DNA of 64,000 nucleotides, taken from Lunularia cruciata (Eukaryota > Streptophyta > Marchantiopsida > Lunulariales > Lunulariaceae). Below, piece after piece: positions 13,139-48,779 of the stretch. The stretch is taken from positions 66,168,333-66,232,332 of the forward strand of contig OX419756.1 of assembly GCA_948567375.1 (NCBI GenBank). Direction: 5' to 3'. The translations under genes and the position numbers were made by a program. Under the pieces are notes generated by a model. That model saw nothing but the letters and a program-made list of their open reading frames with translations, did no database searches and was not told the DNA's origin. How positions within the stretch are numbered: the first letter of the stretch is position 1; the number at the start of each line of letters is the position of its first letter.

Positions 13139-13691
13139 TTCACCTTATCTTGAGCTTTGTAGTGGAAGTTACAACCATTTAAAGGCACCTTTGAGATAGT
13201 AACTTTGGAGATGACATCATGACATCTTTGGCCTAGAACAAACTTATATGTAGGAATTACTTTTGGGTTGACACTTTTCATACTCCAACAGTTGAAATTT
13301 TGGCAAGTTGAAGCTGACCTGAAGTGGGTATATGTCCACTTGTGGTAGGCTTGAACAATTCCTTATTTGGAATTTGGAATGCTTGAGGAGGATTACTGTA
13401 TGAGAGGATGGGAGGAGAAATTGGGAAATTGGCAAGGATTGAGGGATCAAGAGTGCTTAGCCTATCAATTGATGGAGATTGAAGGAGAGGGATTGGAGAC
13501 CTCAAAATATCTTAATTGATCAAATGGGGATTTTTTAAGAAAAGGATTTCAAGATTTAAGGATAGAGGGTTTGAGGAGCAAGAAATTCAACCATTGATTG
13601 GATGGGATGATTGGAGAGAGTGGGTTTTTTTACAAATGGTTTTAATTGATAGAGTAAGGAATCAAATGTCAGTTTTGACAAGAAGGGTTCT
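13139..13691 (+). repeat. Left half of insertion 'I' within an A-family derivative (A2), split by element A
   Basis: This segment continues at 23611 after removal of element A. The joined segment matches, in inverted orientation, about 31766-32700. Shared blocks include the stretch near 'ggcctagaaca', 'ggaattggcaaggattgagg' and 'gacaagaagggttct'. No coding domain is recognised in 'I'; open frames here are low-complexity. It ends with TTCT, the target duplication of element A. Confidence 0.7.
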
Positions 13692-14142
13692 TGTCACGCC
13701 ATTTGTAGTTCCGCATCTAGTTGCTCGGACACTGGAGTTCCAGTGATAGTAGTTAGAGTTATTTCAGTAGTATCTCAGAGACTACTTTTCGACGGTCAGA
13801 TTTGGTGTTCGGGGTACTGACTTCACGGTGGGGCCCACCATCACTTTGCACCATTTGCACCGTTGAGTGTGCCGTCAGCGGGACCGTTAGGGTTTCAAGG
13901 CTAGCTTGAGTCCAGGGGTATAGTTTCGAAGGTGAGCTCCAGAGAGCTCACTTCTCTGATGTTGAGCCTTCGAGTTCCTGGCTATGGTGGACAGAGGCCG
14001 GCGAGCATCACCTGGATTCTCTATGCTTGAGTGGGTGTGGCTCGACTGTAATCAGTGCCAAGTTGTTGGCAGTTTATAGAGTGACAGATCAAGTACTGAT
14101 CTGAGTTGAGTTGAGATGAGAGTGTTAAGCAATCTGATTACA
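13692..14142 (+). repeat. 5' LTR of element A, lacking the first ~107 bp
   Basis: It matches 23055-23503 at roughly 97 percent by eye, most differences being C/T or G/A. It starts 'tgtcacgcc' and ends 'ctgattaca', just before the PBS-like site. The segment found at the start of the 3' LTR (22948-23052, beginning 'tgtggcacttt') is missing here. The element therefore begins part-way into its LTR. Confidence 0.85.
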
Positions 14143-14151
14143 TCAGAGAAG
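14138..14151 (+). promoter_or_regulatory. Primer-binding-site-like sequence of element A
   Basis: 'ttacatcagagaag' resembles the initiator-Met tRNA primer site common in plant LTR elements (TGGTATCAGAGC...), matching at about 11 of 15 aligned positions. It sits right at the 5' LTR end, which is where a PBS belongs. The leading TGG is not conserved, so the assignment is tentative. Confidence 0.45.
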
Positions 14152-15592
14152 TGAAGTCAGGGGGAAATCGGGTGCAGGAACGTTGAGTGTTGGTGATATC
14201 TCCAAGCTCGGTGGATCGTGGTAGCTCGATTCAGGTTCTGTGTTTCCCTAGTGTGCAGAAGCTCGTGTAGTTGATGCAAATTTGGCAATTAGGCGGACGG
14301 TGTGCGGAAGCGCTGGCCAAATTTCGAGCAAAGAAGGAGCAATTTTTGAGCAGTGTTGTGATTTTGAGCTCAGGAGATGAAGGCAGGACCAATTTGCTGC
14401 GAGTTGGGCTCAGAAGGTGAAATTGAAGGTGGAGTTGGAAAGCTCTTCTCATGAAATTGTGATTTGGAAAAACCCGTTTTGTCAATTTGGCTCGAGTGGA
14501 AAGTTAGCGGGGGATTTGGCGGACATCCATCTTTAGTTTTTACATCAGATTTTCCGTCAGATTTACGTCAGATTTTGGGCCAGAATTGGAGGAGTTTTGC
14601 TGTTTGGCCAGATTTGGAGAAGTTTCGCTAGTTTGGAGGAGTTTCGCAGATTTGGAGAAGTTTTGCCAATTTTGGAGGAGGTTCAAAGTGGCAACAAGAA
14701 AGGACTCATTTGGCTGAATTTTGGCGTTTCAAGGCATAGGGCTGTGGGCTATGAGAGGCTACAAAGGCCTAGAAGGGCCAGCAAGCCAGCTTGTTGGCGT
14801 GAGGCTAGCTAGTTTAGTGTAGATCTTGGTCATTGGTTGGCAAAATCTGCCTTTCTTGCTAGATTGTGCGCAACAGGGTTTGACCCCTAGATCTCTTGTT
14901 CCTAGACTGGTGCCCTAGCCAACTGGTCCACCCTCACTTGTTGTCATAGTGACTGTGCCACTGTTATCTATACACATGTAGCTTTGGCTAAGAGAGGCAG
15001 TTTGATCCCATTCTTGGTGATCCTGGTAGCTTAGGACTTAGATACGAACTACTCTTCAAATGCCAAATGGTGGCACAGTCAGTCCCGTGTTGTGTTATGA
15101 GATGGAGGGTTTTTGTTTAGATTTCTTGTGATTGGATCCCCTCCATTCTCTACTTCCTGTTTGTGCACCACGTTTGTGTGAGGTGCCTTGACTTTTGAGC
15201 GTTGGTGCTCTGGTGTACTCTCGGTGGTGAGGCTGGAGTGATGACCAATCAGACTACCTTTGTTTCTCTCCGGTGAGGCAGGAAGTGATGACCTGCAGAC
15301 CGTGAGAGTGCGTGTTATGATGGCAAGTTACAGGTTGCCCTTCCCCTAGTGTAGTTATCTCGGTAGAGTTACATTAGTGGGTGGTGTTTAGTTGGTGTTG
15401 GCACGTGGTGGTGTTGGCACTTGGTGGGGTACTTGCGGTTGCGACTTGCGGTTGCAGTTGGTGGTTCGGGTTTACTGTTGCAGTTACGTGGTCACGACGG
15501 AGTTCTTTGGAGATTCCAAAGGAGTTAGCCCTGCAGTACGTAGTGGGTTTACTTGGAGTGGTGCTCGGTATTAGCCTGTATCTCAGGTCCCA
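14152..15592 (+). other. Untranslated leader of element A
   Basis: About 1.4 kb without a long reading frame separates the PBS from gag. It holds short tandem-like repeats around 'ggagaagtttcgc' and 'ggaggagtttcgc' (14590-14680) and a minus-strand tRNA-like segment (14868-14938). The downstream part (15091-15592) is shared with element B (41016-41420). B lacks about 110 bases there between 'cacgacggag' and 'gagattgact'. Confidence 0.6.
14868..14938 (-). other. tRNA-like segment (possible SINE head) in the leader of A
   Basis: On the minus strand, 'tggaccagttgg' (14919-14930) fits an RNA polymerase III A box and 'ggggtcaaaccc' (14876-14887) fits a B box. They are about 30 bases apart, as in a tRNA. 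The flanks could form a rough acceptor and T-arm, but the anticodon stem is poor. It may be a tRNA-derived SINE inserted antisense, or a decayed tRNA copy. No tail or target duplication was confirmed. Confidence 0.4.
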
Positions 15593-17661
15593 GTGAGGGA
15601 GGAGATTGACTCTGAGTTGGAGTTCGACACAAGAGCTGATTCAGTTGAGAGTGCACTTGGTGTGTCCGCACCGTTGTTGTGGGACATGGACGAGATTTAT
15701 GGGGCCTCCAAAGGCCCTAGGCGTTACTCTGGTACAATGGGTACCATTGAGTTGGATGACTTCATCCAGGAGTTTGATAGTTTGTGTGATCTGCAACAGA
15801 TGCGGAACCCGAATTTGTTCACACCCTTCATGGCATGGAAGGGGTTGTTTTAGCACTTGGAGGGTCCGCCGATGGACGATTACCATGAGTTCAAGAGAGC
15901 TCATTTGGAGGAGATTGAGTTGTGGAGACAATATGGGTCTCCACACTATGTCTCCATCACTTCAGGCTCGGTGGCCAGGAGTAGATCGGCTGTACCCACG
16001 AGTTCTAGCTCGAGTAGTGTGGGTGGAGCTAGTGGAGGTGCACTAGCTAGAGATAGTGCTACTACGAGTGGAGGTACCGCTGCAGGAGGTGGTGTGGTAC
16101 CGGTGTTTAACCCCATGGTTGAGTTCTTCCTATGTTTGAGGCAGAACTACCAGGGAGTGCGGACTGACAAGCTAAGGAGCTTGCAGGAGTTCCAACGGAA
16201 GGCTGGAGAGAGCCTACGTGAGGCATATACTCGCATGAGGCGGCTGATCAGTTTCACTCAGGGAGTTACTGAGGCCCAGGCAATCCAGTTTTGGTATGGG
16301 ATACTTGACAGGGAGTTGCGACGTAGAGTTCGTGATGCTACGTTGTTGCAGGCTACTTTGCCCACTTTGGCAGTAGTCTTTGGTTTGGCTGAGCGTATTG
16401 AGCTCAACATGGTGGAGGAGAGAGTGGTGACAGTTGGATTTGGTAGAGAGACCTCATCCATGTGACTTCTTCTAGAGTGCAGCAGAGTGCACCACGCCCA
16501 GTTGGTTTTCAAGGATAGGGTGGACAGCCCAGATCCTATGGAGCGAGTGGAGGGCCTAGTGGAGTTAGACCCTTACCCTCATTTTTGGGTCAGCAGCAGC
16601 CAGTGAGTGGTGGTGTTGCTTGTTGGACTTGTGGTGGACCTCACCATAGGAGAGAGTGTACTCAGGGCAGCGGACCTGATACCTCTGGTGCATCACAACC
16701 AGCACAGAGGCAGTGTGAGCATTGCCACAGATTTGGTCACACTAGTGACCGGTGTTTTGACCTACACCCGGAGTTACGGAGTGGTAGGGCTGCTATGGTA
16801 GGTAGTAGAGGAGCTCCAGTTCATGGAGGACGAGGTGGTAGAGGTGGTGGTAGAGGATCTACACCTAGTAGGGGTGCAGTACCTGCCCTTACTTCTGACA
16901 CAGCTATGGCTACTCGGATTGAGCAGTTGGAGCAGAGATTGGCTAGTATGGCTATTGCTCAGAGGAGATCAGATTCGGGTGCTGAGGCTTCCACCTCATA
17001 TGCTGGTGATAGAGATGCTTTGGACTTCATGTGCGGAGCAGCACAGGTGGATGCATCTGCAGCAGTGACTAGGAGTGCAGTACGTGCTCCAGAGCCTAGA
17101 GGAGTATCAGTGGAGTTGGACCCACAGAGAGGAGAGGATGGGACACAGGTCAGACTTCCCCAGTCTTTCACGCTATCTGAGGCATTGCAGACAACATCCA
17201 TGGTTCCTAGACGTCCTAGTGCAGGTGTGGTAGGTGGTGATGGAGTACCTGATGGAGTACCTGCTAGTCAGCCACCTGCTACTACACAGACTGAGTCTAG
17301 CATGATGTTGGGGGCGGCTCAGTTGATTATGCGGCATCCTTTATTTTCAGCCAGTGACATGTTTACATTGGGAGTTGACCTAGCCCCAGTGTTCCGGTTG
17401 GCTACCACATTGTGTGAGAGTAGGGATGGTGCAGTTCCTACTACTAGAGCAGAGGTGGTTGGTAGTGGAGATGACTTGGTTGAGGAGCATGGGATCCGTT
17501 CAGCGACCAATGGTTTATGGCAGGCAACAGCGGCTAGATTGGAGGAGTTGCCAGCTAGACCGGCCTTTGAGAGAGCGCGGTTTACACCTGGTGTTGTCCT
17601 ATTGGATAACCAGAGGGGGATCTTTTGCTTAGTGGGACCTTCAGGGAAGGTCTATATACCA
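15593..17661 (+). pseudogene. Gag polyprotein of element A (capsid and two zinc knuckles)
   Basis: Broken capsid-nucleocapsid gene. 15593-16465 (frame 2) includes the capsid segment with 'LRSLQEFQRKAGESLREAY' and 'RMRRLISFTQGVTEAQAIQF', with one internal TAG at 15851-15853. A small deletion near 16458, relative to element B, shifts the frame. Frame 1 (16585-17661) then carries two zinc knuckles, 'CWTCGGPHHRREC' and 'CEHCHRFGHTSDRC' (the second a perfect CX2CX4HX4C), followed by a Gly/Arg-rich tract. The start codon is uncertain: the open frame begins at GTG and the first ATG is at 15686. Gag should build the particle and bind element RNA. Confidence 0.85.
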
Positions 17662-17664
17662 TAG

Positions 17665-18180
17665 AGAGTCTTGTTAGACTCTGGTGCGCAGCCCCTTATG
17701 TTGGGGAAGGTTGCAGTTGTTGGTCTGGAGTTACGGAAGACCGATGTGGAGAGGTGTCCATTTCAGATCCAGACATCTCTAGGTGGTGGTTCGACACAAT
17801 ACATCACACGTGGGGAGCTTGTTGTCCAAGTTCAGCCTGGTCATCCGACTGATAGCTCGGTGGTGAGAGCTCAGGCTATTGCGACGATAGATAGCTGAGT
17901 GCTAGTTGGGGGAGCAGTGTTATACCCTATGGGTTTCAGCATTGACTATTAGGAGGAGACAACCTCTTATAGACCTGGTTGGCAGTCTGGTGAGGGACAA
18001 GTATGTCGCCTACCAGTACGCTTCAGTAGTGGCAGTCTTGGCTCACTACAGTCCGGGACCATGGCAACATTAGTTTTAGCTTTCAGCGGTGCAGTTACTT
18101 GGCCTGGTGACTTGTTGGAAGGGAACGCCCGTGCAGAGGATACTCCAGTACCAGAGGAGATCACTCGGCTATGGAGTACG
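17665..18180 (+). pseudogene. Retropepsin-like aspartic protease of element A
   Basis: It continues frame 1 directly from gag after a TAG at 17662-17664. The active-site motif 'VLLDSGAQPLML' has its catalytic Asp at 17677-17679. Downstream 'VGLEL', 'CPFQIQTSLGG' and 'VLVGGAVLYPMGF' are typical of gypsy proteases. TGA at about 17896 and TAG near 17950 interrupt it. Element B carries an uninterrupted version at 46810-47404, so the breaks here are copy-specific decay. The enzyme would process the polyprotein. Confidence 0.85.
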
Positions 18181-18339
18181 AGTGGGATTGTTCCATCCAC
18201 CTTGGATGTTCCATTGTGGAGTTCAGAGGAGGCATTGTAGCAGCATGCAAATCAGTTGGTGCAGTAGGCTTGGAGTGGAGCCTTCGTACCATCAGGGGAT
18301 GAGTGTGAGGATGAGCCTCCAGAGGCGATTGCTTTGACA
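18181..18339 (+). other. Linker between protease and methyltransferase of A
   Basis: An acidic, low-complexity coding stretch in frame 1 with two TAG codons (about 18238 and 18265). No domain is recognised; it joins the protease to the methyltransferase in the same frame. Confidence 0.5.
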
Positions 18340-19340
18340 CCTCTGGATACCACACTCATTGCTTGGCAGTATCCAGTAGAGGGGATATGTCTATTGGAGT
18401 TGTTTGGTGGGATCAGCACCGGACTAGTTGCGGTGTTACAGGCGGGTATCCGAGTACAGAGGTACTTGTATGTAGAGAGAGATGAGACTACTAGGCAAGT
18501 CTCTCTACATCATGTGGCACACTTGGCCTATCGGTATCCGGAGTTATTACCGATGTCAGCAGTTAGAGGTTACCAGAAGGCCTTACCAGGAGACATTTCC
18601 TTACTGGGGGCGCATGACCTAGAGAGACATGGGCCTATTCACTTGGTGATTTTTGGATGGCCATGTTAGGGACATACACGTGCGGGCCACGGTTTGGGTC
18701 TTCAGGATCCTCGTTCTGGTGTGTTTTGGGAGATGTTACGGATACTACGACATCTCCAGGTTCATCAGTCTATTTCTCCAGCTTACCTTTTGGAGAACGT
18801 TCCTTTGATGGGGATTCCCGCACTAGGGTGGTGGCGAGTACACATCAGGTCCATTCTTGGATGGGACCTGCTGTATTGTTAGATGCAGCCAAAGTGGGAT
18901 CACGGGCTCATCGTCTTCGTCTTTGGTGGACAAACCTTTTACCCAGAGAGGTTCTACAGCGTAGTTATGATGGGATTCAACGACTAGACCACATTCTTGT
19001 TGATGATATCTTGGATGCTGGACGTCAGTCTCAGACAGTGGTAGTGGCTGATAGGTCACCTATGGCAGTGGTGAACCTAGTTGGACAGCCTAGAGCTGCA
19101 TTTCCCACACTCATGAGTTTCCCAGGCTCTCATGCTTTTTGAGAGGGAGGACCTGGACTTGTTTGGGACTCACAATTACAGCAGTTGGTGGAGCCCAATG
19201 CTGATGAGAGAGAGTGGGCAATGGGTTTTTGCACCGATATTACCGCTGTTCCAGCAGTGTCAGAGGCATCCAGGCATCAGGTGTTAGGTCAGGCTATGGA
19301 CCTGAACTGTTTGACCTTGATTGTGAGCCTTGGTTTGGCC
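18340..19340 (+). pseudogene. C5 DNA (cytosine) methyltransferase domain inside the element A polyprotein
   Basis: Such domains transfer a methyl group from S-adenosylmethionine to cytosine C5. Motifs seen in canonical order: I 'LELFGGISTGLVAVLQAG' (about 18394-18447, cofactor binding); IV 'FGWPC' with the catalytic Cys at 18664-18666; 'GLQDPRSGVFWEMLRILR' (18694-18747); VI 'ENV' (18793-18801); VIII 'DAAKVGSRAHRLRLWW' (Ala-His-Arg at 18906-18914); IX-like 'FPTLMSFPGSHAF' near 19100; X-like 'VLGQAMDLN' near 19281-19307. The 'GISTGL' and 'DAAKVGSRAHR' stretches resemble the DNMT3 group more than MET1 or CMT, and the order is not permuted as in DRM. Breaks in this copy: TAG at 18667-18669 just after the catalytic Cys, a one-base loss in the G run at about 18811, and TGA at about 19140. 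Host gene capture is inferred. Confidence 0.88.
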
Positions 19341-19775
19341 GAGCAGCGTAGGATGCGCTTGATAGGCATCACCACTCAGACACTTGTGAGCCCTGTGCCT
19401 ATCGAGACGATTCAGGCACATGTTGGGGGCGATGGACCGAGTGGACATGGTATTCTTGGGACACATCCAATAGCTACTAGGGAGAGTGGTCTACTTGGAG
19501 TCCATCCAGGTGAGCGTGGGCTACTTGGATTACACCCTTGGTCCACATGGGATGCAGCCAGAGGACGTATGGAGCTTGCAGCCAGAGTGGAGGGAGTTTT
19601 TCACACAGAGGTTGGGACCTCTAGTGGTCAGGAGCATGACACCATTGCTCCCAAGGGCCCAGTGTAGCAGCCAGTTAGTACGTCTTCCACTCCTACTACA
19701 GTTACAGAGGATACTTGGGAGCCAGATCTTGGACCCAAGCTTATTGGAGAGGAAAGACGGAGGGTTTGGAGGTTC
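19341..19775 (+). other. Linker between methyltransferase and RT of A
   Basis: Coding frame 3 continues from the methyltransferase, with a TAG at 19665-19667, into RT. Around 19400-19540 there are repeated 'LG-H-P' motifs ('GILGTHP', 'LLGVHPG', 'LLGLHPW'), a degenerate heptad-scale repeat of unknown role. No known domain is recognised. Confidence 0.5.
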
Positions 19776-20774
19776 TTGAGGAGTCACACGAGTTGTTTTG
19801 CCTTCAGTATGAAGGATTTGGGTGCTCTGAAGGGACCTGGTATACAAATTGAGCTGACTAGTGACACACCAGTTTTCCGACGTCCTTATCAATATAGTGA
19901 GATGGAGAGGACATTGATTCAGAGCCGGAGTATTGACCTTTTTGAGGCTGGTTTGGTGGAGATTTCACATGGAGAGTATGCATCAGCAACAATGATGCCA
20001 GCCAAGAAGGATATGCATGGCAACTATACAGATAGGCGGATGTGTGGAGATTACCGTCCTATCAACCGACAGACCAGGGCTGATCGGTATGCCATGCCTA
20101 CACCGGAGGAGATTTTTGATGCGATTGGGCATGCAAAGGTCTTCAGTACTTTGGATCTTCGAGCGGGATATCATCAGTTGCCGATCAAGGAGGATAAGTC
20201 CAAGACAACATTTTGGGCTATTGATCCTCATGGCAAGGATGTGTTATATCAATGGAAGTTCTTACCATTTGGGTTGAAGAATGCTCCCGCTGAGTTCCAG
20301 AGGGTCATGGATAGGATCCTAGTTGGATTGGATTTTGCTCGGTGCTATATTGATGACATTTTGGTTTATAGCACTACTGTGGAGGAGCATGAGAGACAGT
20401 TGTTGGAGGTGTTTGAGAGGTTGAGATCTCATGGACTCAAATTACATCCTGGGAAGTGTAGGTTCTTCCATGAGCAGGTTGAGTATTTGGGTCACACTAT
20501 CTACCCCGGAGGACTTGGTGTTCAGCAGACCAAGGTGGAGGCTATTGCACGTATTCCTCGGCCTACGGATGTGAGCAGAGTGCGAGCATTCCTTGGGTTG
20601 GCAAACTTCTATCACCGCTATATTAGAGGATTTAGTGCCATTGCCAAGGCCTTGACGAAGCTGACCAAGCTTACACAAGAGTGGTGTTGGGGAGATGAGC
20701 AGGAGAGAGCTTTTGTAGAGCTCAAGGAGAGGTTGACATCTGCTCCTATTTTGAGGAGACCAATCAAGGGATGA
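19776..20774 (+). CDS. Reverse transcriptase of element A
   Basis: Open for 332 codons as part of the polyprotein; it does not start at its own ATG. RT signatures in order are 'FSTLDLRAGYHQLPIKED', 'FGLKNAPAEFQRVMD' and 'CYIDDILVYS', with the catalytic Asp-Asp at 20352-20357, then 'YLGHTIYPGG' and 'FLGLANFYHRYI' of the thumb and connection. It is intact until TGA at 20772-20774, likely a former CGA codon. It would synthesise element cDNA in the particle. Confidence 0.92.
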   Translation: MRSHTSCFAFSMKDLGALKGPGIQIELTSDTPVFRRPYQYSEMERTLIQSRSIDLFEAGLVEISHGEYASATMMPAKKDMHGNYTDRRMCGDYRPINRQTRADRYAMPTPEEIFDAIGHAKVFSTLDLRAGYHQLPIKEDKSKTTFWAIDPHGKDVLYQWKFLPFGLKNAPAEFQRVMDRILVGLDFARCYIDDILVYSTTVEEHERQLLEVFERLRSHGLKLHPGKCRFFHEQVEYLGHTIYPGGLGVQQTKVEAIARIPRPTDVSRVRAFLGLANFYHRYIRGFSAIAKALTKLTKLTQEWCWGDEQERAFVELKERLTSAPILRRPIKG

Positions 20775-21215
20775 CCATTTCAGGTTCACACTGATTGGAG
20801 TATGTTGGGGCTTGGAGCGGTGCTCACCTAGCATGATGATGAGGAGAAGGAGTTTGTGGTGGCCTATGCTAGTCGCTCCAACAATTCAGCGGAGGCGAAG
20901 TATAGTTCATATGAGGGAGAGTGCTTGGCAGCAATTTGGGCAGTAGCACATTTGCGATGTTACCTATTTGGTAACCCCTTCACTCTCATCATTGATCATC
21001 AGCCGCTGAAGTGGTTGATGGAGTCTGACAAGCTTTCAGGGAAGCTTGCACGATGGGCTCTGATTTTACAGGAGTATGATTTCACGGTTGTTCACAGACC
21101 TGGAGTGGTGAACCGTGATGCAGATGGGTTGAGTAGAAACCCATGTCCCAGCCAGCAGGATCAGACCGGAGCACGTTGGCATGGTGAGACAGATGAGGAG
21201 ATGGTGCCAGGTTGA
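20775..21215 (+). pseudogene. RNase H of element A
   Basis: It continues frame 3 from RT. Catalytic residues are readable: Asp in 'VHTDWSMLGLGAVL', Glu in 'YEGECLAAIWAVAHLR', Asp in 'LIIDHQPLKWLM' and Asp in 'VNRDADGLSR'. TAG at 20829-20831 and TGA at 21213-21215 interrupt it. It would degrade the RNA strand of the RNA/cDNA hybrid. Confidence 0.88.
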
Positions 21216-21230
21216 CATGCATCGGCCTTT

Positions 21231-22637
21231 TTGTGTATATTTGCAGAAACTTTGGTGGTATCTCTCTTAGCGCATACAGGAGGAGTTATTAAGGTCACAG
21301 ATCTAGAGAGTGAAGATATTGGTATAGTTCAGCGAGACATTAATGATGATGTCTTAGTGATGGACTATCTTCGCACTGGTGTTGTGGGTGGCACAGTTGG
21401 GGCCAAGGAGAGAGACCGTGTTCTTCAGCGAGCCAGACGGTTCAGATTGGAAGGTAGACACCTTTTGCGTGTATGGGAGGATGGTAGAGTGCGAGTAGTA
21501 CCACTTCTATCACAGAGACCACAGTTGGTCCGTCATGCTCATGAGGAGCTAGGACATTTTGGAGTAAAGCGTACATATAGCTTACTCCAGAGTCATTATT
21601 GGTGGCGCGGTATGCAGACTGAGGTACAGCAGTTTGTTGCTAGATGTGTGGTTTGTGACCGAGTTAGAGCATCATTCAATGCTCCTACGCCACAGTTACA
21701 CCCATTACCTATCATGGGATTGGGTTACCGTTGGAGTTTGGACTTCGCCGGACCTTTACCGCTGACTGTGAGACATCATCGGTATGTTTTGGTGATGGTG
21801 GAGCACTTCTCCAAGTGGATTGAGTTGGTGGCACTTCCTGACAAGTCTAGTGAAGGGACAGCTTACTCGTTCTTGGATCGAGTTCTTAGTCATTTTGGTG
21901 CACCAGCTGAGGTTTTGACTGATCAGGGTACAGAGTTCTTGGGAGAGTTTCAGGTCTTGTGTGACAAGGCTTTGATTGATCATCGTACTACATCCCGAGA
22001 TCACCCTAAGGCAGATGGCTTAGCAGAGAGAGTGGTTCAGACGGTGAAGAGAGGATTGCGAAAGTATGGTTTGCAGAGGGGCCACTTAGGAGATTGGGAT
22101 CTCCAATTACCTTGGTTGGCCATGGGCTATTGGTTCAGCCGGCAAGCCTCCTTAGCATCCTTCTCTCCATACTTTCTACTCTATGGACAAGATCCAGATT
22201 TACCTGCAGCCATTCGTCGAGATGCTACTGTAGTTTTGGACTTGGATGACCCCAATGTATGGATGAGCGCATGTTCTCAGCGGGCAGAGATCTTTCGGAG
22301 AGTGATGCCGATGGCCTTTGAGAACTTGGCGATTGCTCAGCATAGAGATACTTTACGCTATGCTACCATTCGAGGAGGAGGTTATAGACCCTTGATCCAT
22401 CGATTTCATCCAGGCGACTATGTATATCTACAACAGACAGCACCGACGACACTTGATGTTTCTACAGGCCGCACTATCTTGAGAGTGCGCGAGGTTTTGC
22501 CATTTGGAGTCCTTGTGTTAAAAGGACGTGATGGTGTTGTTTGGAAGGATCATGTGCGCAATTGTGCACCATGCCACCTTCCAAACATTGATGGTACTAT
22601 GGACCCAAGCTTGGCACTTGTACATGCAGGCTTGAGG
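21231..22637 (+). CDS. Integrase of element A
   Basis: An uninterrupted frame that continues into the PHD finger and ends at 22778. The N-terminal HHCC zinc-binding domain is 'HEELGHFGVKRTYSLLQSHY' followed by 'CVVCD' (about 21540-21660). The core carries the DDE triad: Asp in 'WSLDFAG' (near 21740), Asp in 'VLTDQGTEF' (near 21920) and Glu in 'DGLAERVVQTVK' (near 22025). The C-terminal part, 'HPGDYVYLQQTAPTTLD' and 'ILRVREVLPFGVLVLKGRDG', fits the GPY/F-type region. All catalytic residues look intact. It would insert the cDNA into host chromatin. Confidence 0.92.
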
Positions 22638-22778
22638 TGTATGTTATGTGGCTCTTCTGGTGGAGCTGCTACTATGTTAGTGTGTGATAGCTGTTCGAGA
22701 GGATGGCATATGGCATGTATGACTCCTCCCCTCACGGTGGTTCCTCAGGGACAGTGGTTATGTCCTAGATGTACTTGA
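22638..22778 (+). CDS. PHD zinc finger at the C-terminus of the A integrase
   Basis: The last 46 residues form a C4HC3 PHD finger: 'CMLC', then 'LVCDSCSRGWHMACMTPP' (Cys-X2-Cys, His-X2-Cys) and 'QGQWLCPRC', ending with TGA-side stop at 22776-22778. All eight zinc ligands are present. PHD fingers commonly bind histone H3 tails. The position after the integrase is where chromoviruses such as element D carry a chromodomain, so a role in chromatin targeting is inferred. The ligand cannot be told from sequence alone. Confidence 0.9.
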   Translation, partial: CMLCGSSGGAATMLVCDSCSRGWHMACMTPPLTVVPQGQWLCPRCT

Positions 22779-22930
22779 CCTATAGCTAGTTCATTCTCTA
22801 TATGGTATAGATTGCAGACAGGCAACTAACAATGGGGCTCCATAGCATCCGGCCTCCTGATCTTTGCCCATTAGAGGGTATACCATATACTTAGAGTAGA
22901 TGGCTATCTGGAGTTAGAGGGACCTAACCG
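22779..22930 (+). other. 3' untranslated internal region of element A
   Basis: A short non-coding stretch between the polyprotein stop and the polypurine tract. Confidence 0.6.
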
Positions 22931-22947
22931 CCAGCTAGGGGGGCGAT
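22931..22947 (+). promoter_or_regulatory. Polypurine tract of element A
   Basis: 'ccagctaggggggcgat' lies immediately before the 'tgtggcac' start of the 3' LTR. A G-rich tract touching the LTR is the expected plus-strand primer site. This placement supports 22948 as the true LTR start. Confidence 0.7.
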
Positions 22948-23503
22948 TGTGGCACTTTAGAGTCTATGTATGACTTATGTGTGAGTTGTGCTTTTATAGT
23001 GTATGATGTTGACAGCGATGTATGTTGTGTAGCGATGTATATATGCACGACAGCTGTCATGCCATTTGTAGTTCCGCATCTAGTTGCTTGGACACTGGAG
23101 TTCCAGTGATAGTAGTTAGAGTTATTTCAGTAGTATCTCAGAGACTACTTTCCAACGGTCAGATTTGGTGTTAGGGGTACTGACTTCACGGTGGGGCCCA
23201 CCATCACTTTGCACCGTTTGCACCGTCGAGTGTGCCGTCAGCAGGACCGTTAGGGTTTCAGGGCTAGCTCAAGTCCAGGGGTATAGTTTCAAAGGTGAGC
23301 TCCAAAGAGCTCACTTCTCTGATGTTGAGCCTTCGAGTTCCTGGCTATGGTGGACAGAGGCCGGCGAGCATCACCTGGATTCTCTATGCTTGAGTGGGTG
23401 TGGCTCGACTGTAATCAGTGCCCAGTTGTTGGCAGTTTATAGAGTGACAGATCAAGTACTGATCTGAGTTGAGTTGAGATGAGAGTGTTAAGCAATCTGA
23501 TTA
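22948..23503 (+). repeat. 3' LTR of element A (full length)
   Basis: It begins 'tgtggcacttt' right after the polypurine tract and ends 'aatctgatta'. Its first ~105 bases (to 'gcacgaca' at 23052) are absent from the 5' LTR; after 'gc' the rest (23055-23503) matches the 5' LTR. The internal junction forms the perfect palindrome 'gacagctgtc' at 23049-23058. The final 'ca' seen at 14141-14142 is missing here. Confidence 0.8.
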
Positions 23504-23610
23504 ATTGTGGCACTTTAGAGTCTATGTATGACTTATGTGTGAGTTGTGCTTTTATAGTGTATGATGTTGACAGCGATGTATGTTGTGTAGCGATGTATAT
23601 ACGCACGACA
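23504..23610 (+). repeat. Extra copy of the first 107 bp of the A LTR
   Basis: It is identical to 22946-23052 except for about one base and ends 'gcacgaca', directly followed by the TTCT target duplication. The outer ends of the inserted DNA are thus 'tgtc' and 'gaca', both internal to the LTR. Confidence 0.85.
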
Positions 23611-24030
23611 TTCTTGATAAACATGAAAAAATTAAGCTTTCCAGAGTTATAATTCAATTAACATGGATTGAAAGAGAGGTTGGAGAATTCTATGAGTTCT
23701 TTTGATTGGGGTTGACCTGAAGAAAGTTTGTTAAAAGTTATTGATAATGAAGGAGTTTTTTAAGATCAATATAAGTGAGTTAAGAGACATTATACTTCAA
23801 AAAATTGTGAAGAAATTTATACTTTATAAATATATCAAGTTTAATAAATTTCTCAGATTTCTTGAAGGTTAAACTCCAATACATTCCAAAAATTGTCTTT
23901 GGAATGAATGAAGGAGTGAAAAGTAATTAAATAAAATAAGCAATTGTAGCCAAACTGATGCATTGTCTATTCAACAAGAATTCTAGTTTTCTGTTATTTG
24001 GAAACTAAACTACATGAAAATATATTCCTT
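23611..24030 (+). repeat. Right half of insertion 'I' in A2
   Basis: It resumes the sequence interrupted at 13691 and aligns with the reverse complement of about 31770-32190, including 'gattgaaagagag' and the stretch near 'gaatgaatgaagga'. It has no coding domain. Confidence 0.7.
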
Positions 24031-24860: not shown

Positions 24861-25084
24861 TGAATCCACCTTCACAATACTCTGCCTTGTGCGGCTTGAT
24901 GGGGTCTTCCCATCTGTCCTGTTTTCTACACGGTTACACCTTCATCCTTCACAATATAAGTACATATTCTTTTGTCCACTTTTCAAAAGATAATGAGAGA
25001 TCAATAGAATCATACAGGTCACACAACCATCCAAAAGAATCAAAAGGTCATTTTCACACAACATAGCAAATCACACTTTGTCAC
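24861..25084 (+). repeat. Tail of A2 shared with its inverted relative
   Basis: The sequence following the A-family part ('aatccaccttcacaatact' and later 'cttttgtccacttttcaaaag') matches the reverse complement of about 30560-30680. About 60 extra bases around 24880-24945, flanked by similar 'ccttcacaat' words, are present only here. Confidence 0.6.
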
Positions 25085-41015: not shown

Positions 41016-41419
41016 TGTGTTATGAGATGGAGGGTTTTCATTTAGATTTCTTGTGATTGGACCTTCTCCATTCTTTGCTTCTTGTTTGTGCACCATGTTT
41101 GTGTGAGGTGCCTTGAGTTTTGAGCGTTGGTGCTCTGGTGTGCTCTCAATAGTGAGGCTGGAGTGATGACTAGTCAAACTATCTTGTTTCTCTCCGGTGA
41201 GGCAAGAAGTGATGACCTACAGACCGTGAGAGTGCATGTTATGATGGCAAGTTACAGGTTGCACTTTCCCCTAGTGTAGTTATCTCAGTTAGAGTTACAT
41301 TAGTGGGTAGTGCTTAGTTGGTATTAGCACTTGGTGGTGTTGGCACTTGGTGGGGTACTTGCGGTTGCGACTTGCAGTTGCGATTGGTGTTGGTTTGCTG
41401 TTGTGGTTACTTTGTCACG

Positions 41420-43334
41420 ACGGAGATTGACTCTAAGTTGGAGTTTGACATAGGAGCTGATTCAATTGAGAGTGCACTTGGTGTGTCCGCACCATTATTG
41501 TGGATGAGATTTATGGATGATACATGGATGAGATTTATGGGGCCTCCAAAGGCCCTAAGCGTTACTCTGGTACAATGGGTACTATTGAGTTGGATGACTT
41601 CACCTAGGAGTTTGATAGTTGGTGTGATCTGCAGCAGATGCGGACCCGACTTTGTTTACACCCTTCATGGCATGGAAGGGGTTGTTTCAACATCTGGAGG
41701 GTCCATCAATGGATGACTACCATGAGTTTAAGAGAGCTCATTTGGAGGAGATCAAGTTGTGGAGACAATATTGCTCTCCAAACTATGTCTCTATCACTTA
41801 GGCTTGGTGGCCAAGAGTAGATTGGCTGTACCTACAAGTTCTAGCTCGAGTAGTGTTGGTGGAGCTAGTGGAGGTGCACTAGCAGGAGGTAGTGCTACTA
41901 CAAGTGGAGGTACCACTGTAGGAGATGGTGTGGTGCCAGGGTTTAATCCCATGGTGGAGTTCTTCTAGTGTTTGAGGTAGAACTACCATGGAGTGCAGAC
42001 TGACAAGCTAAGGAGCTTGCAAGAGTTCCAATGGAAGGCTGGAGAGAGCCTACGCAAGGCATACACTCGCATGAGGCGGCTGATCAGTTTCACTCATGGA
42101 GTTAGTGAAGCCCAAGCAGTCCAGTTTTGGTATGGGATATTGGATAGGGAGTTGCAATGTAGATTTTGTGATGCTACATTGTAACAGGCTACTTTGCCTA
42201 CTTTGGAAGTGGTCTTTGGTTTGGCTGAGCGTATTGAGCTCAACATGGTGGAGGAGAGAGTGGTGACATTTGGATTTGGTACGGAGACCTCATCCACGAC
42301 TGTGACTTCTTCTAGAGTGCAACAAAGTGCACCATGCCTAGTTGGTTTTCAAGGACAAGGTGGACAGCCCATATCCTATGGAGCAAGTGGAGGGCCTAGT
42401 GGAGTTAGACCCTTTCCTTCATTTGCAGGTCAACAACAACCAATGAATGGTGGTGTTGCTTGTTGGACTTGTGGTGGACCTCACCATCAAAGAGAGTGTA
42501 CTTAGGGCAATGGACCTAATACCTTGAGTGCATCACAACCAGCACATAGGCAATGTGAGCATTGCCACGGATTTGGTCACACTAGTGATCAGTGTTTTGA
42601 CCTACAACTGGAATTACAAAGTGGTAGGGCTGATATGGTAGGTAGTAGAGGAGCTCCAGTTCATGGAAGACGAGGTGGTGGTAGAGGACCTACACCTAGT
42701 AAAGGTGCAGTACCTGCCCTTACTTTTGATACAACTATGGCTACTTGGATTGAGCAGTTGGAGCAGAGATTGGCTAGTATGGCTATTGCTCAAAGGAGAT
42801 CAGATTTGGGTGATGAGGCTTCCACCTCATATGCTGGTGACAAAGATGTGTTGGATTTCATGTGCGAAGCAACACAGGTGGATGCATCTGCAATAGTGAC
42901 TAGGAGTGCAATACGTGCTCCAAAGCCTAGAGGAGCATTAGTGGAGTTGGACCCACCGAGAGGAGAGGTTGGGAGACAGGTCAGACTTCCCTAGTCTTTC
43001 ATGCTATCTGAGGCATTGCAGACGACATCCATGGTTCCTAAACGTCCCAATGTAGGTGTGGTAGGTGGTGATGGAGTACATGGACTACTTGCTAGTTAAC
43101 CACCTACTACTACACAGACTAAGTCTAGCATGATGTTGGGGGCGGCTCACCTGTTTATGCGGCATCCTTTGTTTTTGGCCAATGACATGTTTACATTGGG
43201 AGTTGACCCAACCCCAATGTCCCGGTTGGTTGCCACACTTTATGAGAGTAGAGATGATGTGGTTCCTATTGCCAGAGCAGAGGTAGTTGGAAGTGGAGCT
43301 GACTTGGTTGAGGAGCATGGGATCCGTTCAACAA
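41420..43334 (+). pseudogene. Gag of element B (A family)
   Basis: It matches A gag, with the capsid block 'LRSLQEFQWKAGESLRKAY' and knuckles 'CWTCGGPHHQREC' and 'CEHCHGFGHTSDQC' (second knuckle CX2CX4HX4C). Stops occur at about 41607, 41801, 41968, 42184, 42506, 42994 and 43098. B keeps the five bases that A lost near 16458, so the two copies decayed independently. It ends where F begins. Confidence 0.85.
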
Positions 43335-43414
43335 TGTCAAGGAATTTGTTTGGCCTCAAGAGTGCACAGGCACCTGGCCGTTTGTGCTTAGTTTGTCCTT
43401 GGCCTTCACAGTAC

Positions 43415-44105
43415 TGAGAGCCGGCCTGTCTCTCACTCAGGATGAACCTCTGATGGCTATTATGGTAGCACACCATGGACTAAAAAGGCAAGGAACCCCA
43501 ACTCCATCATACTCCTCCAAGGCTAACACTCCAAGACTCAAGACATTGCTCACTAGAGAACTCAATGAGAGAGAGATAGTTGCAAATGAAAGGATGATGA
43601 GTACCTCCTCACCCCTTGCTTATATACTTGTGAAATAGTTCCGTACCAAAGTTGCTAATTACCATAGTAACTCAAGTTACTAGACTAAAAGTCAAGTAAA
43701 GTCAAAAAGTAGAAAGGAATATCCATTCACATGGGCATATTCCCCTAAGCATGTGGTCTTATCTTGACCCAACCACTAGTCAAAGATTCCATCACATGGG
43801 CTATCCTTGGACTAAAGAAATATCCAAAACAAAATGGCTTGCGGGCCCAAGAGTTCTCAACTCTTTCCTCAAAGCCAAACACCTAGGAATAATACCAAGT
43901 CAACACACTAAAATCCAAAATAGTGGTGCTCATCTTTTCTACTTCCTCTAAAGTAAGGTCCCCTCTATCTTAGCTATGACTAACTTTAGCTAACCATGAC
44001 TAATATAGAACCATCCTTTATCTCTATATAAATAATATCTCTTAAGTACTTGTAATACGAAGTTAAATATCACAATATCACACACATGCACATATGGGTG
44101 TTATA
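43415..44105 (-). repeat. Solo family-E LTR (E3) nested in F
   Basis: About 691 bp, almost identical to the LTRs at 53746-54437 and 61454-62132. Flanking GTAC (43411-43414 and 44106-44109), or AGTAC if one terminal base is trimmed, is the target duplication. No family-E internal sequence is attached, so it is a recombined solo LTR. Ends are mutated: 'tgagag' instead of 'tgtgag', and 'gttata' instead of 'gttaca'. Confidence 0.88.
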
Positions 44106-44637
44106 GTACTTGGCTAGCTCATGTGGTTTCAACTATGGTTTTGGGACTTGATGGTTCCTAGGAGAGGCTGGAATTTTTATGAACAACAACTAGTATTCTA
44201 TTCAGCTCAACGAAGCCAGGCTACTGATCAAACCTTTCATATAGACGGACTGAGAGCTCCTAAAATGGAGCTTCCACAATGCTAATCACAAGTCAGCACA
44301 CCATCATCTTAGCTCTACTAGATCTACAAATTTTTTTTCTTGTCCAACCTTCTCTCTCTTGCAAGGTCCTTCATTCTCTTGCAAAGAAACCCATTTTCTG
44401 CCCTGCACTATCAAGGCCGCGCTTTCATGCAAAAATTTCTCTCCTCTACCTTGCACTCCTTCAAGGCATACTCCCTGCCATTTGTTCATCTGGCCACTGT
44501 CATGCTCAATAGCACTTTTGAAAGTTTTCTCTCTCCTTCTATCACAGACCAAGGCCAAGCAACCTTTGAAAATCTGTCTTCAATAGTTCACTCCTGTCCA
44601 GATCAAGCCCTAGAGACTCTCGCTCCTTCACTCTGAA

Positions 44638-44732
44638 CAGTCTCTCATTCACTTTGTCCAATCTCTCATTTGCTCTGTCTAGTCTCTCATATGCTCTGTC
44701 CAGTCTCTCATTCACTCTACCCAGTCTCCCCT
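44638..44732 (+). repeat. Short tandem repeat in F, ~21-24-bp unit
   Basis: Four to five copies of a unit like 'tctctcattcactctgtcca' in a row. On the minus strand they encode a repeating 'RLDRANE'-type peptide in a chance frame. Confidence 0.8.
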
Positions 44733-45159
44733 TCATGAGAATTCTTCACTGTTACATTTTCAACAGCACATCCTCTACATTCAAAATTCATTCCATGTCC
44801 ACTTCTTCACAACAAACATTCTTCATTCAAAATTTGCTCTCCTATCAACATTCTCACAATAAACATCCTTCCACATTCAAATCATTCCCTGTCCAGCTAG
44901 AGCAACCCTAACACAAATCTACCCATGTCACTAGCTACTGCTCAGGGAAGCCAACTTTCAAAATCTCTCCTATCTTGTGCAAGGCAAAGTCAGACCCTTA
45001 AATTTCTTCTCCTGCTCCCGCCTTAGTTCAATCCTTCTTGCAGATTTTCAACTCCTTCTCTTCTCCACTGTTCCAAATCAATGACCAAGCAAAACTCAAA
45101 AATATCTTGCTCTTGCAACAGCCATATGCCTCTACTCTCAAAATTTCCCCTCCTCCTAT

Positions 45160-46140
45160 CACAGCCCTAATGCATCTCTAAAATTTCCTCTAGCCTTGCA
45201 ACACTCTCACTCAACCTTTGAATTTCTTCTCCTGGCCCTGTCACAGCTCTACGGCATCTCAAAAATTCCTCATCCCTCAAGACTCTCACTCAACTTTTGA
45301 AAATCATCTCTCCCTTCTTGTCACAACCCTAAGGCATTTCAAAAATTCATCCCTGGCCCTGCAAGATTCTCACTCAACTCCTGAAATTTTTTCTCCTATT
45401 ACAGCCCTAAGGCATTTTGAAAATTCCTCTCTGGCCCTGCATCACTCTCACTCAACTCCCAAAAACTTTCTTCTCCTGTCACAGCCCTAAGGCATTCAAA
45501 AATTCATCTGGCCCTGCATGACTCTCACTCAACTCTCAAAAAATTTCTTCTCCTATCACAGCCCTAAGGCATTTCAAAAATTCCTTGCTGGCCCTACAAG
45601 ATTCTCTCTCAACTCTTGAAAACTTTCTTCTCTTGTCACAGCCCTAAGGCATTTCAAAAATTCCTCTCTGGCCCTCCAAGACTCTCACTAAACTCCCAAA
45701 AACTTTCTTCTCCTATCACAGCCCTAAGGCATTTTGAAAATTCATCTCTGTCCCTACAAGATTCTCACTCAACTCCCAAAAACTTTCTTCTCCTGTCACA
45801 GCCCTAAGGCATTTTGAAAATTCATCTTTGGCCCTGCAAGATTCTCACTCAACTCCCAAAAACTTTCTTCTCCTGTCACAGCCCTAAGGCATTTTGAAAA
45901 GTCCTCTCTGGCCTTGCATGACTCTCACTCAACTCCCAAAAACTTTCTTCTCCTATCACAACCCTAAGGTATTTCAGAAAATCCTCTCTGGCCCTACATG
46001 ACTCTCACTCAACTTCCAAAAACTTTCTTCTCATGTCACAACCCTAAGGAATTTTGAAAATTCCCCTCTGGCCCTGCAAGACTCTCACTCAACTCCCGAA
46101 TTTCATCTCCCAGCCATGTCACAGCCCTCAGGCATCTCAA
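45160..46140 (+). repeat. Minisatellite in F, ~80-bp unit, about 12 copies
   Basis: The unit contains 'ccctaaggcatttcaaaaat', 'tcctctctggccctgcaaga', 'ctctcactcaactcccaaaa' and 'actttcttctcctgtcacag', with copies differing by substitutions and small indels. Open frames through it simply follow the repeat. Confidence 0.9.
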
Positions 46141-46352
46141 AAAATCCCTCAGGCCCTCTTTCTCCCAAAAAGTTCCCCCCTTCCTTCTCAAACCCTGCTC
46201 TTCCTCTCAATCCTCTCTCTCTCACATTGATCCTCCAAAAAAACCCATGTCCCTTCCAAAATTCAAACCTTTTTCCAAGCCAACCTATTTTTTGGTATCT
46301 CTCTCTTCCTGTCCCAAAAACCCTTCATCCATATCCCAAATCCTCTTTGCTG

Positions 46353-46550
46353 TCCAGCACTTTCCTTTTTCTCACAACTCTTTTTTGCACTCTTTTTTGT
46401 TTCCAGCAACTTCCTTTTTTCTCACAACTCTCTTTCAAACTCTTTTCTGTCAAGCACTTTCCTTTTTCTCACAACTCTTTTTTGCACTCTTTTTTTTTCC
46501 AGCAACTTCCCTTTTTCTCACAACTCTCTTTCAAACTCTTTTCTGTCTAG
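46353..46550 (+). repeat. Two-copy tandem repeat in F, ~93-bp unit
   Basis: Two adjacent copies of a pyrimidine-rich unit with 'cactttcctttttctcacaa' and 'ctctctttcaaactcttttc'. Confidence 0.8.
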
Positions 46551-46774
46551 CAACAAAACCCTCAATACTTCTTCCCAAAATTTCACTTCCTATTGGTCCT
46601 CTCCTTTCTTGAAGAAAAATCCTTCCTTCCTTAACAAAAGAGAAAATCCTTGAGCCTACAAGAACACAAAACAACTACCAGTTTCACCATAGCATAAACT
46701 CTTGAGTTCTCTAACATGAAAAATTCACACCAAATGGCACCAATACTATGTGTAGTTTATTTTCCCGACAACAA

Positions 46775-47404
46775 CAACCAGTGGTTCATGGCAGGCAGCA
46801 GCGGCTAGATTGGAGGAGTTGCTAGCTAGACCGGCCTTTGAGAGAGCACGGTTCACACCTGGTGTTGTCCTATTGGATAACCAGAGGGGAATTTTCCGTT
46901 TGGTGGGACCTTCAAGGAATGTCTATACACCACAGAGAGTCTTGTTAGACTCTGGTGTGCAGCCCCTTATGTTGGAGAAGGTTGTAGTTGTCGGCCTGGA
47001 GTTACAAAAGACCAATGTGGAGAGGTGTCCATTTCAGATCCAGACATCTCTAGGTGGTGGTTTGACACAGTGTATCACACATGGGGAGCTTGTTGTCCAG
47101 GTTCAGACGGGTCATCCGACTGATATCTTGGTGGTGAGAGCTCAGGCTATAGCTGAGTCATATGATGTGCTAGTTGGAGGAGCAATGTTATACCCCATGG
47201 GCTTCAGCATTGACTATTGGGAGGAGACAGCCTCCTATAGACCTGGTTGGCAGTCTGATGAGGGATGGGTATGTCGCCTACTAGTACGCTTCAGTAGTGG
47301 CAGTCTTGGCTCAATACAGTTCGAGACCATGGCAGCATCAGTTTTAGCTTTTGATGGTGCAGTTACTTGGCATGGTGACTTGTTGGAGGGAAACGCCCAT
47401 GAGA
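46775..47404 (+). CDS. Protease of element B, uninterrupted
   Basis: The open frame runs through 46810-47404 and reads into unrelated sequence to 47433. It contains the active-site 'VLLDSGVQPLML', 'CPFQIQTSLGG', 'VLVGGAMLYPMGFSIDYW' and 'ETMAASVLAFDGAVTWHGD'. This is the best-preserved protease of the A family here and shows that the stops in A are secondary. It is separated from its gag by F. Confidence 0.85.
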
Positions 47405-48779
47405 AGTTGACTAATATGCATCTTGGGATTTGATCATGTGGTGGAAATCCTAGAGCAACTTGAATCTTTTGTGTTGCCTATGGTTGACTACTCTAAAATG
47501 ATGTTAGTCATGTTTGTACTTAATTAGATATAAGGTGAGAGACAAAAAGAACATACATACATGTAGAGGAAGGAAAGGTAGTGAGGGATTCAGATGGGAA
47601 GACTTCTAGTTTTTTTTGGCAAGAATGGAGAGGATGTTGAGGCTTTTGTGAGATAATTCAAGTGTGCTTGCATAGGAAACAATGAGAGAAGGAAGAATGA
47701 GTCGGCACCATGAGTACCGGATTTCTTTGATGATGTTGCTCTTATATGGTATGAATTAGAATACCAAAAAAATTAATAGATGGGCAAGAGGAGTCTTGGG
47801 AGAGTTTGATTATACCACTCATTGAGAAAAAAAATTGGATAAACTTTATGAGAGATTGATGAGTGAAATTACTTTCCTCAAGCAAGGATATGGAGATAAA
47901 GTGAGAATTTATGCAAAAAGAGTGGAGAAGTTAGAATCCAAGTTATGCATAGTGTTGAGGAAGAGTGTAGAGACTACCAAGAGTGAGATAAAAGCCATGC
48001 TTACCAAGAATTTTATGTGAGGTTTGGAACTAAAAATTCAAAGCAAGGTGAGATATGAGCAACCTTCTTCCAAGGTGGAAGCTATCAATATTGCAATTCA
48101 AATGGAGGAAAATTTAGAAGGAGATGAGAGTGATGTGGTGGTGAAGGAGGTTGTACATCCTCCACAAGTCTACAAGTATGGTAGGGCTTTTGATCCTTTG
48201 GTAGCAAGTGTGCCAACACAAGTAAGAGGTGCTCTTATTCTTGCATCTCCATCAAAAGATCCCCTTCAAACTATCATGGAGTAACTTGCAAATCTCAAGA
48301 TTAATGTTATGCAACTTTCAGAGAAGAAAGAAGTAGACCAAAATGTTGAGTTAGGCCTAGGGGTTATGGAACTATTCATATAGAAGAGGCCAACCAACTA
48401 GTAATCTCAATGATAAAATTATTTTGGTTGTGGAGGTAGAGGTCACATCCAAAAGAATTGCCCAAATTGCACTTACAATGGAGAAAGGTGTTATGAGGAG
48501 GCAAATAGAGAGAAAAAGGGAGGTGGTGAAGCTCTAGTGCCTCCTATGCAAAAATGGAGGCAAGGGGATAGTATCCATTGATGTGATGGAGAGAAGGTAT
48601 AAAAAAGATAATTCTCACATTCCAAGGGTCTCAACTTGGAGTTTTTGGCACAAGAGAAGAAGAGAACATGTTTTGCATATGTTATACATTCTTCTCATGA
48701 ATTTACTCCTAGTAAGGATATTCCAATGCCCCCAAGGAGAACTTGCACTACTAGTTCAACATCATCAACAAAGATTCCA
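47405..48779 (+). pseudogene. Old family-E gag remnant on the plus strand (G2)
   Basis: Inverted homologue of 5780-7065. Gag pieces at 47835-48284 include 'MDKLYERLMSEITFLKQGY' and 'VRYEQPSSKVEAINIAIQM'. Near 48420 a zinc knuckle reads 'YFGCGGRGHIQKNC', with Tyr again in place of the first Cys, as in G1. Stops and frameshifts throughout. RT, present in G1, is missing here. Confidence 0.78.

What the first reader, a model, noticed from the sequence alone, without database searches (positions are those of the whole stretch)
18340..19340. A DNA cytosine methyltransferase is encoded inside a plant Ty3/gypsy polyprotein
Between protease and RT, and collinear with them, lies a C5-methyltransferase with motif I, the Pro-Cys of motif IV, Glu-Asn-Val, the 'AHR' of motif VIII and motif IX/X-like segments, in canonical order. 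Plant DRM enzymes have rearranged motifs, and the text around motifs I and VIII looks closest to the DNMT3 group. DNMT-bearing retrotransposons are known from charophytes and dinoflagellates; a land-plant gypsy family with one would extend this. The element could methylate its own DNA or that of its host. This copy is broken by a stop after the catalytic Cys and a one-base loss at ~18811.
Basis: partly seen in the sequence, partly recalled or inferred. Interest (0 to 1): 0.95.

Follow-up and report, generated by a model that had tools for sequence, protein, structure and literature searches.

The report
Plant retrotransposon carrying DNA methyltransferase
A jumping gene that is very common in this plant genome carries its own version of the enzyme that cells use to mark and silence DNA, an arrangement known so far from a few algae, which makes it a way to study how genomes and their parasites fight over DNA marks.

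Summary
Window 18376-19340 encodes a DNMT3-type cytosine methyltransferase, in canonical motif order, inside a 9.9-kb Ty3/gypsy-type element (13692-23610) ordered gag-PR-DNMT | TAG | RT-RNaseH-IN-PHD. It is not a private insertion: the unnamed 566-Mb genome gave 150 close DNMT matches (the cap) and 4730 RT-motif places; of 20 sampled RT copies 19 have the DNMT beside them and the 20th is truncated. Named relatives: Marchantia, Calypogeia, Sphagnum and three green algae, plus many unnamed metagenome proteins. Likeliest role (inferred): the DNMT, made at Gag level, methylates the element's own cDNA. Activity is untested, most copies in the RT-based sample are decayed, and selection on the DNMT within the genome was weak or undetectable; the case for function rests on deep conservation. 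Nearest known: KnitGypsy-Dnmt3 (2018), whose sequence I could not compare.

The parts
13692..23610 (+). whole element
   Evidence: repeat map and an unoccupied paralogue on the minus strand at about 32260-32101
13688..13691 (.). target-site duplication TTCT, left
23611..23614 (.). target-site duplication TTCT, right
13692..14140 (+). repeat A1
   Evidence: 96.9% identical to A2 over 449 bp
15686..17664 (+). gag region with two zinc knuckles (read by eye); broken in this copy
   Evidence: profile hits 15686-16459 and 16462-18000 (the profile is built from relatives); reading
17665..17960 (+). aspartic protease (DSGAQ); outer limits approximate
   Evidence: DSGAQ in relatives
18376..19340 (+). 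DNMT3-type C5-cytosine methyltransferase, broken by a stop after the catalytic Cys, a second stop and a frame change near 18810
19665..19673 (+). boundary stop TAG-CAG-CCA (UAG-CAR-YYA); the RT frame continues in the same frame
19863..20759 (+). reverse transcriptase
   Evidence: PF00078 1.5e-31
20832..21212 (+). RNase H
   Evidence: PF17917 1.1e-26
21462..22610 (+). DDE integrase
   Evidence: PF17921 and PF00665
22638..22772 (+). PHD finger at the C-terminus of the integrase
   Evidence: PF00628 9.4e-11
22937..22943 (+). polypurine-like tract before B1
   Evidence: read from sequence; role inferred
22946..23054 (+). repeat B1; its end and the start of A2 form GACAGCTGTC (23049-23058)
23055..23503 (+). 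repeat A2
23504..23610 (+). repeat B2
   Evidence: 99.1% identical to B1 over 107 bp
41016..47424 (+). second, partial copy of the family, split by other sequence (about 43331-46776); ends before the DNMT

Best explanation
It is one dead copy of a large Ty3/gypsy-type family that carries a DNMT3-type cytosine methyltransferase as a standing part of its polyprotein (shown). The element would make Gag-protease-DNMT as its main product, because a UAG in a readthrough context follows the DNMT; occasional readthrough would add RT-RNaseH-integrase-PHD (organisation shown, readthrough inferred). The DNMT would thus be packaged at Gag level and methylate the newly made DNA copy, mainly at CG, before or at integration, so that the new insert looks like the host's own methylated DNA; the PHD finger on the integrase would read histone H3 at the target (inferred). 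Likelihood: identity and family about 0.97; readthrough about 0.85; cDNA self-methylation as the main role about 0.4.
For: Identity. Catalytic Cys in 150 of 154 relatives covering the site, motif VI Glu in 149 of 153 (near-duplicates counted). DNMT and RT diverge together: r=0.82 over 190 pairs from 20 elements, 0 of 2000 permutations as high, mean identity 0.41 for both. 19 of 20 RT copies sampled carry the DNMT. TAG-CAR-YYA stands at the boundary in the window, in L029 (DNMT 50% identical), in 19 of 20 similarity-picked and 16 of 20 RT-picked copies (one copy is in both samples); in the 12 copies with an open DNMT frame, RT follows in the same frame. PHD in 23 of 23 relatives with at least 70 residues after the integrase. 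Precedent: two SymbioDIRS-Dnmt3 domains methylated CG de novo in yeast (PMC5890265).
Against: No activity, expression or methylation data for this family. The KnitGypsy-Dnmt3 domain showed no activity in yeast, called inconclusive there. The element is not poorer in CpG (o/e 0.43-0.61) than its surroundings (0.15-0.65), and L029 is 0.82. Selection on the DNMT inside the genome is weaker than on RT among close copies (DNMT dN/dS 0.35 against 0.43 and 0.86 in shifted frames; RT 0.28 against 0.59 and 0.83) and not visible for either among RT-sampled copies, of which 1 of 19 has an unbroken DNMT. In the clade's other branch the DNMT lies inside Pol, and P0037 has no stop between DNMT and RT, so Gag-level supply is not general.
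Confidence: 0.5

Rival explanations
1. Self-restraint: the DNMT methylates genomic copies (or host DNA) to silence the family and limit harm to the host.
For: Copies decay in methylation contexts: 63 of 71 stops in the DNMT of 19 RT-sampled copies read as CAG>TAG (39), CGA>TGA (17) or TGG>TAG (7) against one open copy; the window's A repeats differ by 14 of 449, 12 of them transitions, 7 of the 12 at CG.
Against: Host CG and CHG methylases explain the same marks. The family still reached thousands of places.
Confidence: 0.2
2. Protection: methylation shields the cDNA from a nuclease, sensor or deaminase that recognises foreign unmethylated DNA.
For: Discussed for other DNMT-retrotransposons in PMC5890265; fits Gag-level supply.
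Against: No such sensor is shown here; the paper itself notes that retrotransposons without a DNMT also succeed.
Confidence: 0.2
3. The domain is a non-catalytic structural or nucleic-acid-binding part, methylates RNA, or is cargo whose function is fading in this lineage.
For: The Pro of Pro-Cys is Glu in 17 of 24 rows that I put in the RT-DNMT-IN group; the algal gypsy domain was inactive in yeast; weak within-genome selection.
Against: Catalytic Cys, Glu-Asn and the motif VIII Arg are nearly invariant; in Marchantia rows Pro is kept in 13 of 13 and Cys in 12 of 13.
Confidence: 0.2
4. A host gene fragment captured once, in this copy only, without function.
For: This copy is broken.
Against:: shared across copies, species and phyla.
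Confidence: 0.01

Closest known systems
KnitGypsy-Dnmt3 of the charophyte Klebsormidium nitens (de Mendoza et al. 2018, PMC5890265; parts 1-4 of 7 and term passages seen)
   Same: Ty3/gypsy domains, unrearranged DNMT3-type DNMT in the Pol polyprotein, repeats arranged as in DIRS elements; the window's repeats are A-coding-B-A-B.
   Different: Its sequence did not turn up in my searches, so common descent is untested; the main text has no mention of PHD (0 occurrences). Here: bryophyte relatives, thousands of RT places in one genome, DNMT upstream of a readthrough-type stop, relatives in liverworts, Sphagnum and green algae.
SymbioDIRS-Dnmt3 and SymbioLINE-Dnmt of Symbiodinium (same paper)
   Same: Retrotransposon-borne DNMT; the DIRS form uses a DNMT3.
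   Different: Tyrosine recombinase or LINE machinery instead of a DDE integrase.
DNMT3A/3B
   Same: Best solved relatives of the domain. Animal DNMT3 has PWWP and ADD domains; ADD is PHD-like (recalled).
   Different: Here a PHD sits on the integrase, not beside the DNMT; the Pfam scans of the window pieces and seven relatives listed no PWWP or ADD.
Chromodomain gypsy elements (chromoviruses; recalled, search listing only)
   Same: A chromatin-reader module after the integrase.

Membership tests
Ty3/gypsy retrotransposon | order PR-RT-RNaseH-IN with a DDE integrase | tested here: met
Ty3/gypsy retrotransposon | two plain LTRs flanking the body | tested here: not met
   A-coding-B-A-B in the window and in 9 of 10 further copies whose ends were fetched; the 10th showed neither repeat in the stretches taken
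Ty3/gypsy retrotransposon | short target duplication as made by a DDE integrase | tested here: met
   4 bp: TTCT in the window, exact in 8 of 9 other copies with both ends, AAGA/AGGA in the ninth
DNMT3 methyltransferases | best profile match DNMT3, canonical motif order | tested here: met
DNMT3 methyltransferases | groups with DNMT3 in a tree | tested here: inconclusive
   57 rows: 23 retro domains plus one partial PDB DNMT3A form a clade apart from 32 phage/bacterial rows and one DNMT1-named protein (support 0.86); the retro clade alone 0.53; no plant DNMT3 or DRM sequence available, window not in this tree
DRM methyltransferases | rearranged motif order | tested here: not met
   motif I precedes IV, VI, VIII, X
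KnitGypsy-Dnmt3 | gypsy domains + DNMT3 in the polyprotein + DIRS-like repeats | tested here: met
   against the description
KnitGypsy-Dnmt3 | common descent by sequence | not testable with these tools
   no Klebsormidium protein is named among the hits (33 and 59 scored only about 8000 candidates each); no protein searches left
DIRS retrotransposons | tyrosine recombinase (and no target duplication, recalled) | tested here: not met
   DDE integrase and 4-bp duplication
Active C5 methyltransferase | methyl transfer to cytosine | not testable with these tools

The most novel reading that the evidence does not exclude
In liverworts it makes the DNMT at Gag level through a leaky UAG, methylates its own cDNA for entry into host chromatin, and by that route multiplied to thousands of copies and helped enlarge the host genome.
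Probability: 0.15. Interest if true: 0.92.

Novelty: new variant of a known kind. Interest (0 to 1): 0.75.

Why it matters
[quoted passage not shown] nitens lineage. Here such elements occur in liverworts and Sphagnum, are abundant in one genome, and have green-algal relatives, which points to an older and wider clade. Marchantia is reported to have five DNA methyltransferases in three classes (MET, CMT and, from the gene names in the passages seen, DRM; PMC5784723), so element-borne enzymes may be the only DNMT3-type ones there (inference, not searched). With open-framed copies in land-plant genomes, the open question why a transposon would carry a silencing enzyme becomes testable.

Tried and rejected
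Private insertion: rejected. Chance motif string: rejected. DRM, DNMT1 or bacterial enzymes as nearest: rejected by profile ranking; the tree is only weakly informative. Ordinary two-LTR structure: rejected. RNA structure after the stop: z +1.5 in the window, -3.8 in L029 by simple shuffles, no shared signal. B1-A2 spacer dinucleotides (GC 4, AC 3, GT 1, AT 1 of 9 copies; GC in the window and L029) are taken as decay of GC.

Within-genome selection. Sample 1: 20 copies picked by hand from the 150 (two of them for carrying a stop) plus the window. DNMT dN/dS 0.35 against 0.43 and 0.86 in shifted frames, RT 0.28 against 0.59 and 0.83; 11 open copies: DNMT 0.32 against 0.40 and 0.80, RT 0.26 against 0.74 and 0.71. 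Sample 2: 19 RT-sampled copies. DNMT 0.44 against 0.43 and 0.68, RT 0.44 against 0.41 and 0.72, private changes flat over codon positions. So selection on the DNMT within this genome is weak in sample 1, weaker than on RT, and invisible in sample 2 for both; I rest on deep conservation.

Limits. DNMT copies were not counted genome-wide (the pattern did not complete), so the count is the capped 150, the window's own copy included. The 20 RT places were every fifth of the 100 listed, all on contig C1 and all exact matches, so 19 of 20 need not hold for the 4730. Host: 565.77 Mb is close to the 565.6 Mbp quoted for Lunularia cruciata (PMC12885004, passages), whose larger genome is put down to Ty3/Gypsy bursts (PMC9985172, passages); this is inference.

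Full report
What is there. The element spans 13692-23610. Its two ends and the 4-bp target duplication TTCT are fixed by an unoccupied paralogue on the minus strand near 32260-32101. Reading order is gag with two zinc knuckles, protease DSGAQ, DNMT, a stop, RT, RNase H, integrase, PHD finger. The DNMT lies in two frames, 18376-18810 and 18810-19340; with a profile free of window sequence the next best match in the window has E 6.8.

Is it a methyltransferase. Alone, the broken fragments are weak: no Pfam hit at E<=1, and DNMT3A at 0.0036 in the PDB for the first piece. With relatives the case is firm. One search found 15 proteins, 14 named Marchantia polymorpha and one unnamed, at 52-73% identity (E 3.6e-70 to 2.2e-38). 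One search found 116, five with an organism name (four C. eustigma, one bacterial MAG) and one named DNMT1 at the threshold. Searches scored only the roughly 8000 candidates sharing most words, so missing host DNMT3s or Klebsormidium proteins mean little. Five of seven relatives scanned pass the PF00145 cut-off; P0038 and P0062 do not. A profile of nine domains ranks DNMT3A/3B first (1.4e-26), then 4onj (1.5e-14, a DRM by recall), named DRM2 (2.7e-10), HaeIII, HhaI and DNMT2 (about 1e-9 to 1e-8), DNMT1 at 0.04. Of relatives covering each site, the catalytic Cys is kept in 150 of 154, motif VI Glu in 149 of 153, motif VIII Arg in 144 of 149 (near-duplicates included).

Is it part of the family. 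The window lies in an unnamed 565.8-Mb genome. The first DNMT piece gave 150 scored matches (the window's own included; 9393 first-look candidates), all 95-100% identical; by my count 8 of the 150 have a stop inside the piece. The RT motif occurs 4730 times and the start of repeat A 3527 times at up to 3 mismatches, reversed-pattern controls 0. Of 20 RT places (every fifth of 100 listed; all on C1, all exact), 19 have the DNMT beside them over at least 310 of 322 profile positions; the 20th is a copy whose homology begins at the equivalent of 19680. Of 20 copies picked by hand, 12 have the DNMT frame open to the boundary stop. Of the 19 RT-sampled copies, 1 has neither stop nor net frame change in the DNMT, and that copy is also in the hand-picked set. 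So open copies exist, but decay is the rule.

How it is organised. The boundary stop is TAG-CAG-CCA in the window and TAG-CAA-TCA in L029, a relative sitting in a cyanobacterial MAG record, with RT following in the same frame in both. It is the only TAG-CAR-YYA on the plus strand of each. The six letters have about a 0.2% chance after a given stop. It stands in 19 of 20 similarity-picked and 16 of 20 RT-sampled copies. CAR YYA after UAG is the tobamovirus readthrough consensus, with 32% readthrough measured for the TMV site in plants (PMC2754532, passages). P0037 reads from DNMT into RT without a stop, so the stop is not universal.

Repeats. Downstream of the coding part the order is B1-A2-B2, while only A1 stands at the left. 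The same plan appears in 9 of 10 other copies whose ends I fetched, with exact 4-bp duplications in 8 of those 9. B1 and A2 meet in GACAGCTGTC, found once in the window and once in L029, in its non-coding part. The window's element begins TGTC and ends GACA; the 9 copies begin TGTC, and 8 end GACA, one AACA. De Mendoza et al. give DIRS-like repeats for KnitGypsy-Dnmt3 in a figure legend.

The wider clade. Among 41 relatives with DNMT and RT or integrase found on one protein, the DNMT precedes RT in 7 and follows it in 20; in 14 no RT was found and the integrase follows the DNMT directly, which fits the second order except for P0008, a Marchantia gene model. In an RT tree of 20 elements the six DNMT-before-RT members group at support 0.995; the DNMT tree keeps five of them together (0.987) and leaves P0065 unresolved. 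DNMT and RT identities correlate at r=0.82 (0 of 2000 permutations as high) with equal means. This fits one old acquisition followed by a move of the domain; two captures are not excluded. PHD fingers are present in 23 of 23 relatives long enough to show one. The window's PHD is nearest in the PDB to those of CHD4, KMT2D, KMT2C, PHF12, KAT6A, DPF2/3 and KDM5; several of these read the H3 tail with unmodified K4 (recalled).

Decay. In the 19 RT-sampled copies, 63 of 71 stops inside the DNMT read as CAG>TAG (39), CGA>TGA (17) or TGG>TAG (7) relative to one open copy; the first is a CHG and the second a CG context. The A repeats of eight copies differ by 1.3-3.6%, 79 of 89 differences being transitions; the window's by 14 of 449, 12 transitions, 7 of them at CG. 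This suggests that copies were methylated at CG and CHG; host enzymes suffice to explain it.

Selection. Among close copies the DNMT's true frame has lower dN/dS than the shifted frames, but narrowly against one of them, and less clearly than RT; among RT-sampled copies neither domain shows a difference from the +1 frame. The argument for function is therefore deep conservation shared with RT.

What is known. Only PMC5890265 in the held library uses any of six terms for such elements. Nine further searches listed, by title and start of abstract, no paper on DNMT-bearing retrotransposons in liverworts or mosses; four listings were cut (20 of 26, 20 of 56, 15 of 39, 15 of 55), and preprints and most subscription papers are not held. 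PMC12344493 (section 5 and passages) repeats the streptophyte and dinoflagellate cases. PMC6453930, PMC9033089, PMC12885004, PMC9985172 and PMC5784723 were seen as term passages only, and those passages say nothing of it.

Verdict. Known in kind (a DNMT3-bearing gypsy element with the same repeat plan is published from one alga), new in host group, scale and organisation. Function is inferred.

Noticed in passing
22638-22772: PHD finger after the integrase, present in 23 of 23 long-enough relatives; possible histone-H3 reader for target choice.
   Followed up: partly
relatives P0039-P0062, P0066, P0067 (proteins): The Pro of the catalytic Pro-Cys is Glu in 17 of 24 rows that I put in the RT-DNMT-IN group (six of them placed by DNMT-IN order alone); unusual for C5 methyltransferases (recalled).
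   Followed up: no
L029 1-9285: A 9.3-kb contig with 127-nt identical ends, filed under a Synechococcales MAG, is a eukaryote-type DNMT retroelement with long open frames: a likely contaminant in that record.
   Followed up: yes
10361-13691 and 23615-25412; 30659-36154 (minus): The element sits inside a second gypsy-like family (RT about 62% identical) with no detectable DNMT in its decayed window copies; whether it ever had one is open.
   Followed up: partly
45153-46157: About 12 copies of an 80-bp tandem unit inside the sequence that splits the second copy of the family.
   Followed up: no
L063-L081 (3' ends of nine genomic copies): The two bases between GACA and TGTC at the B1-A2 junction vary: GC, AC, GT, AT.
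   Followed up: partly
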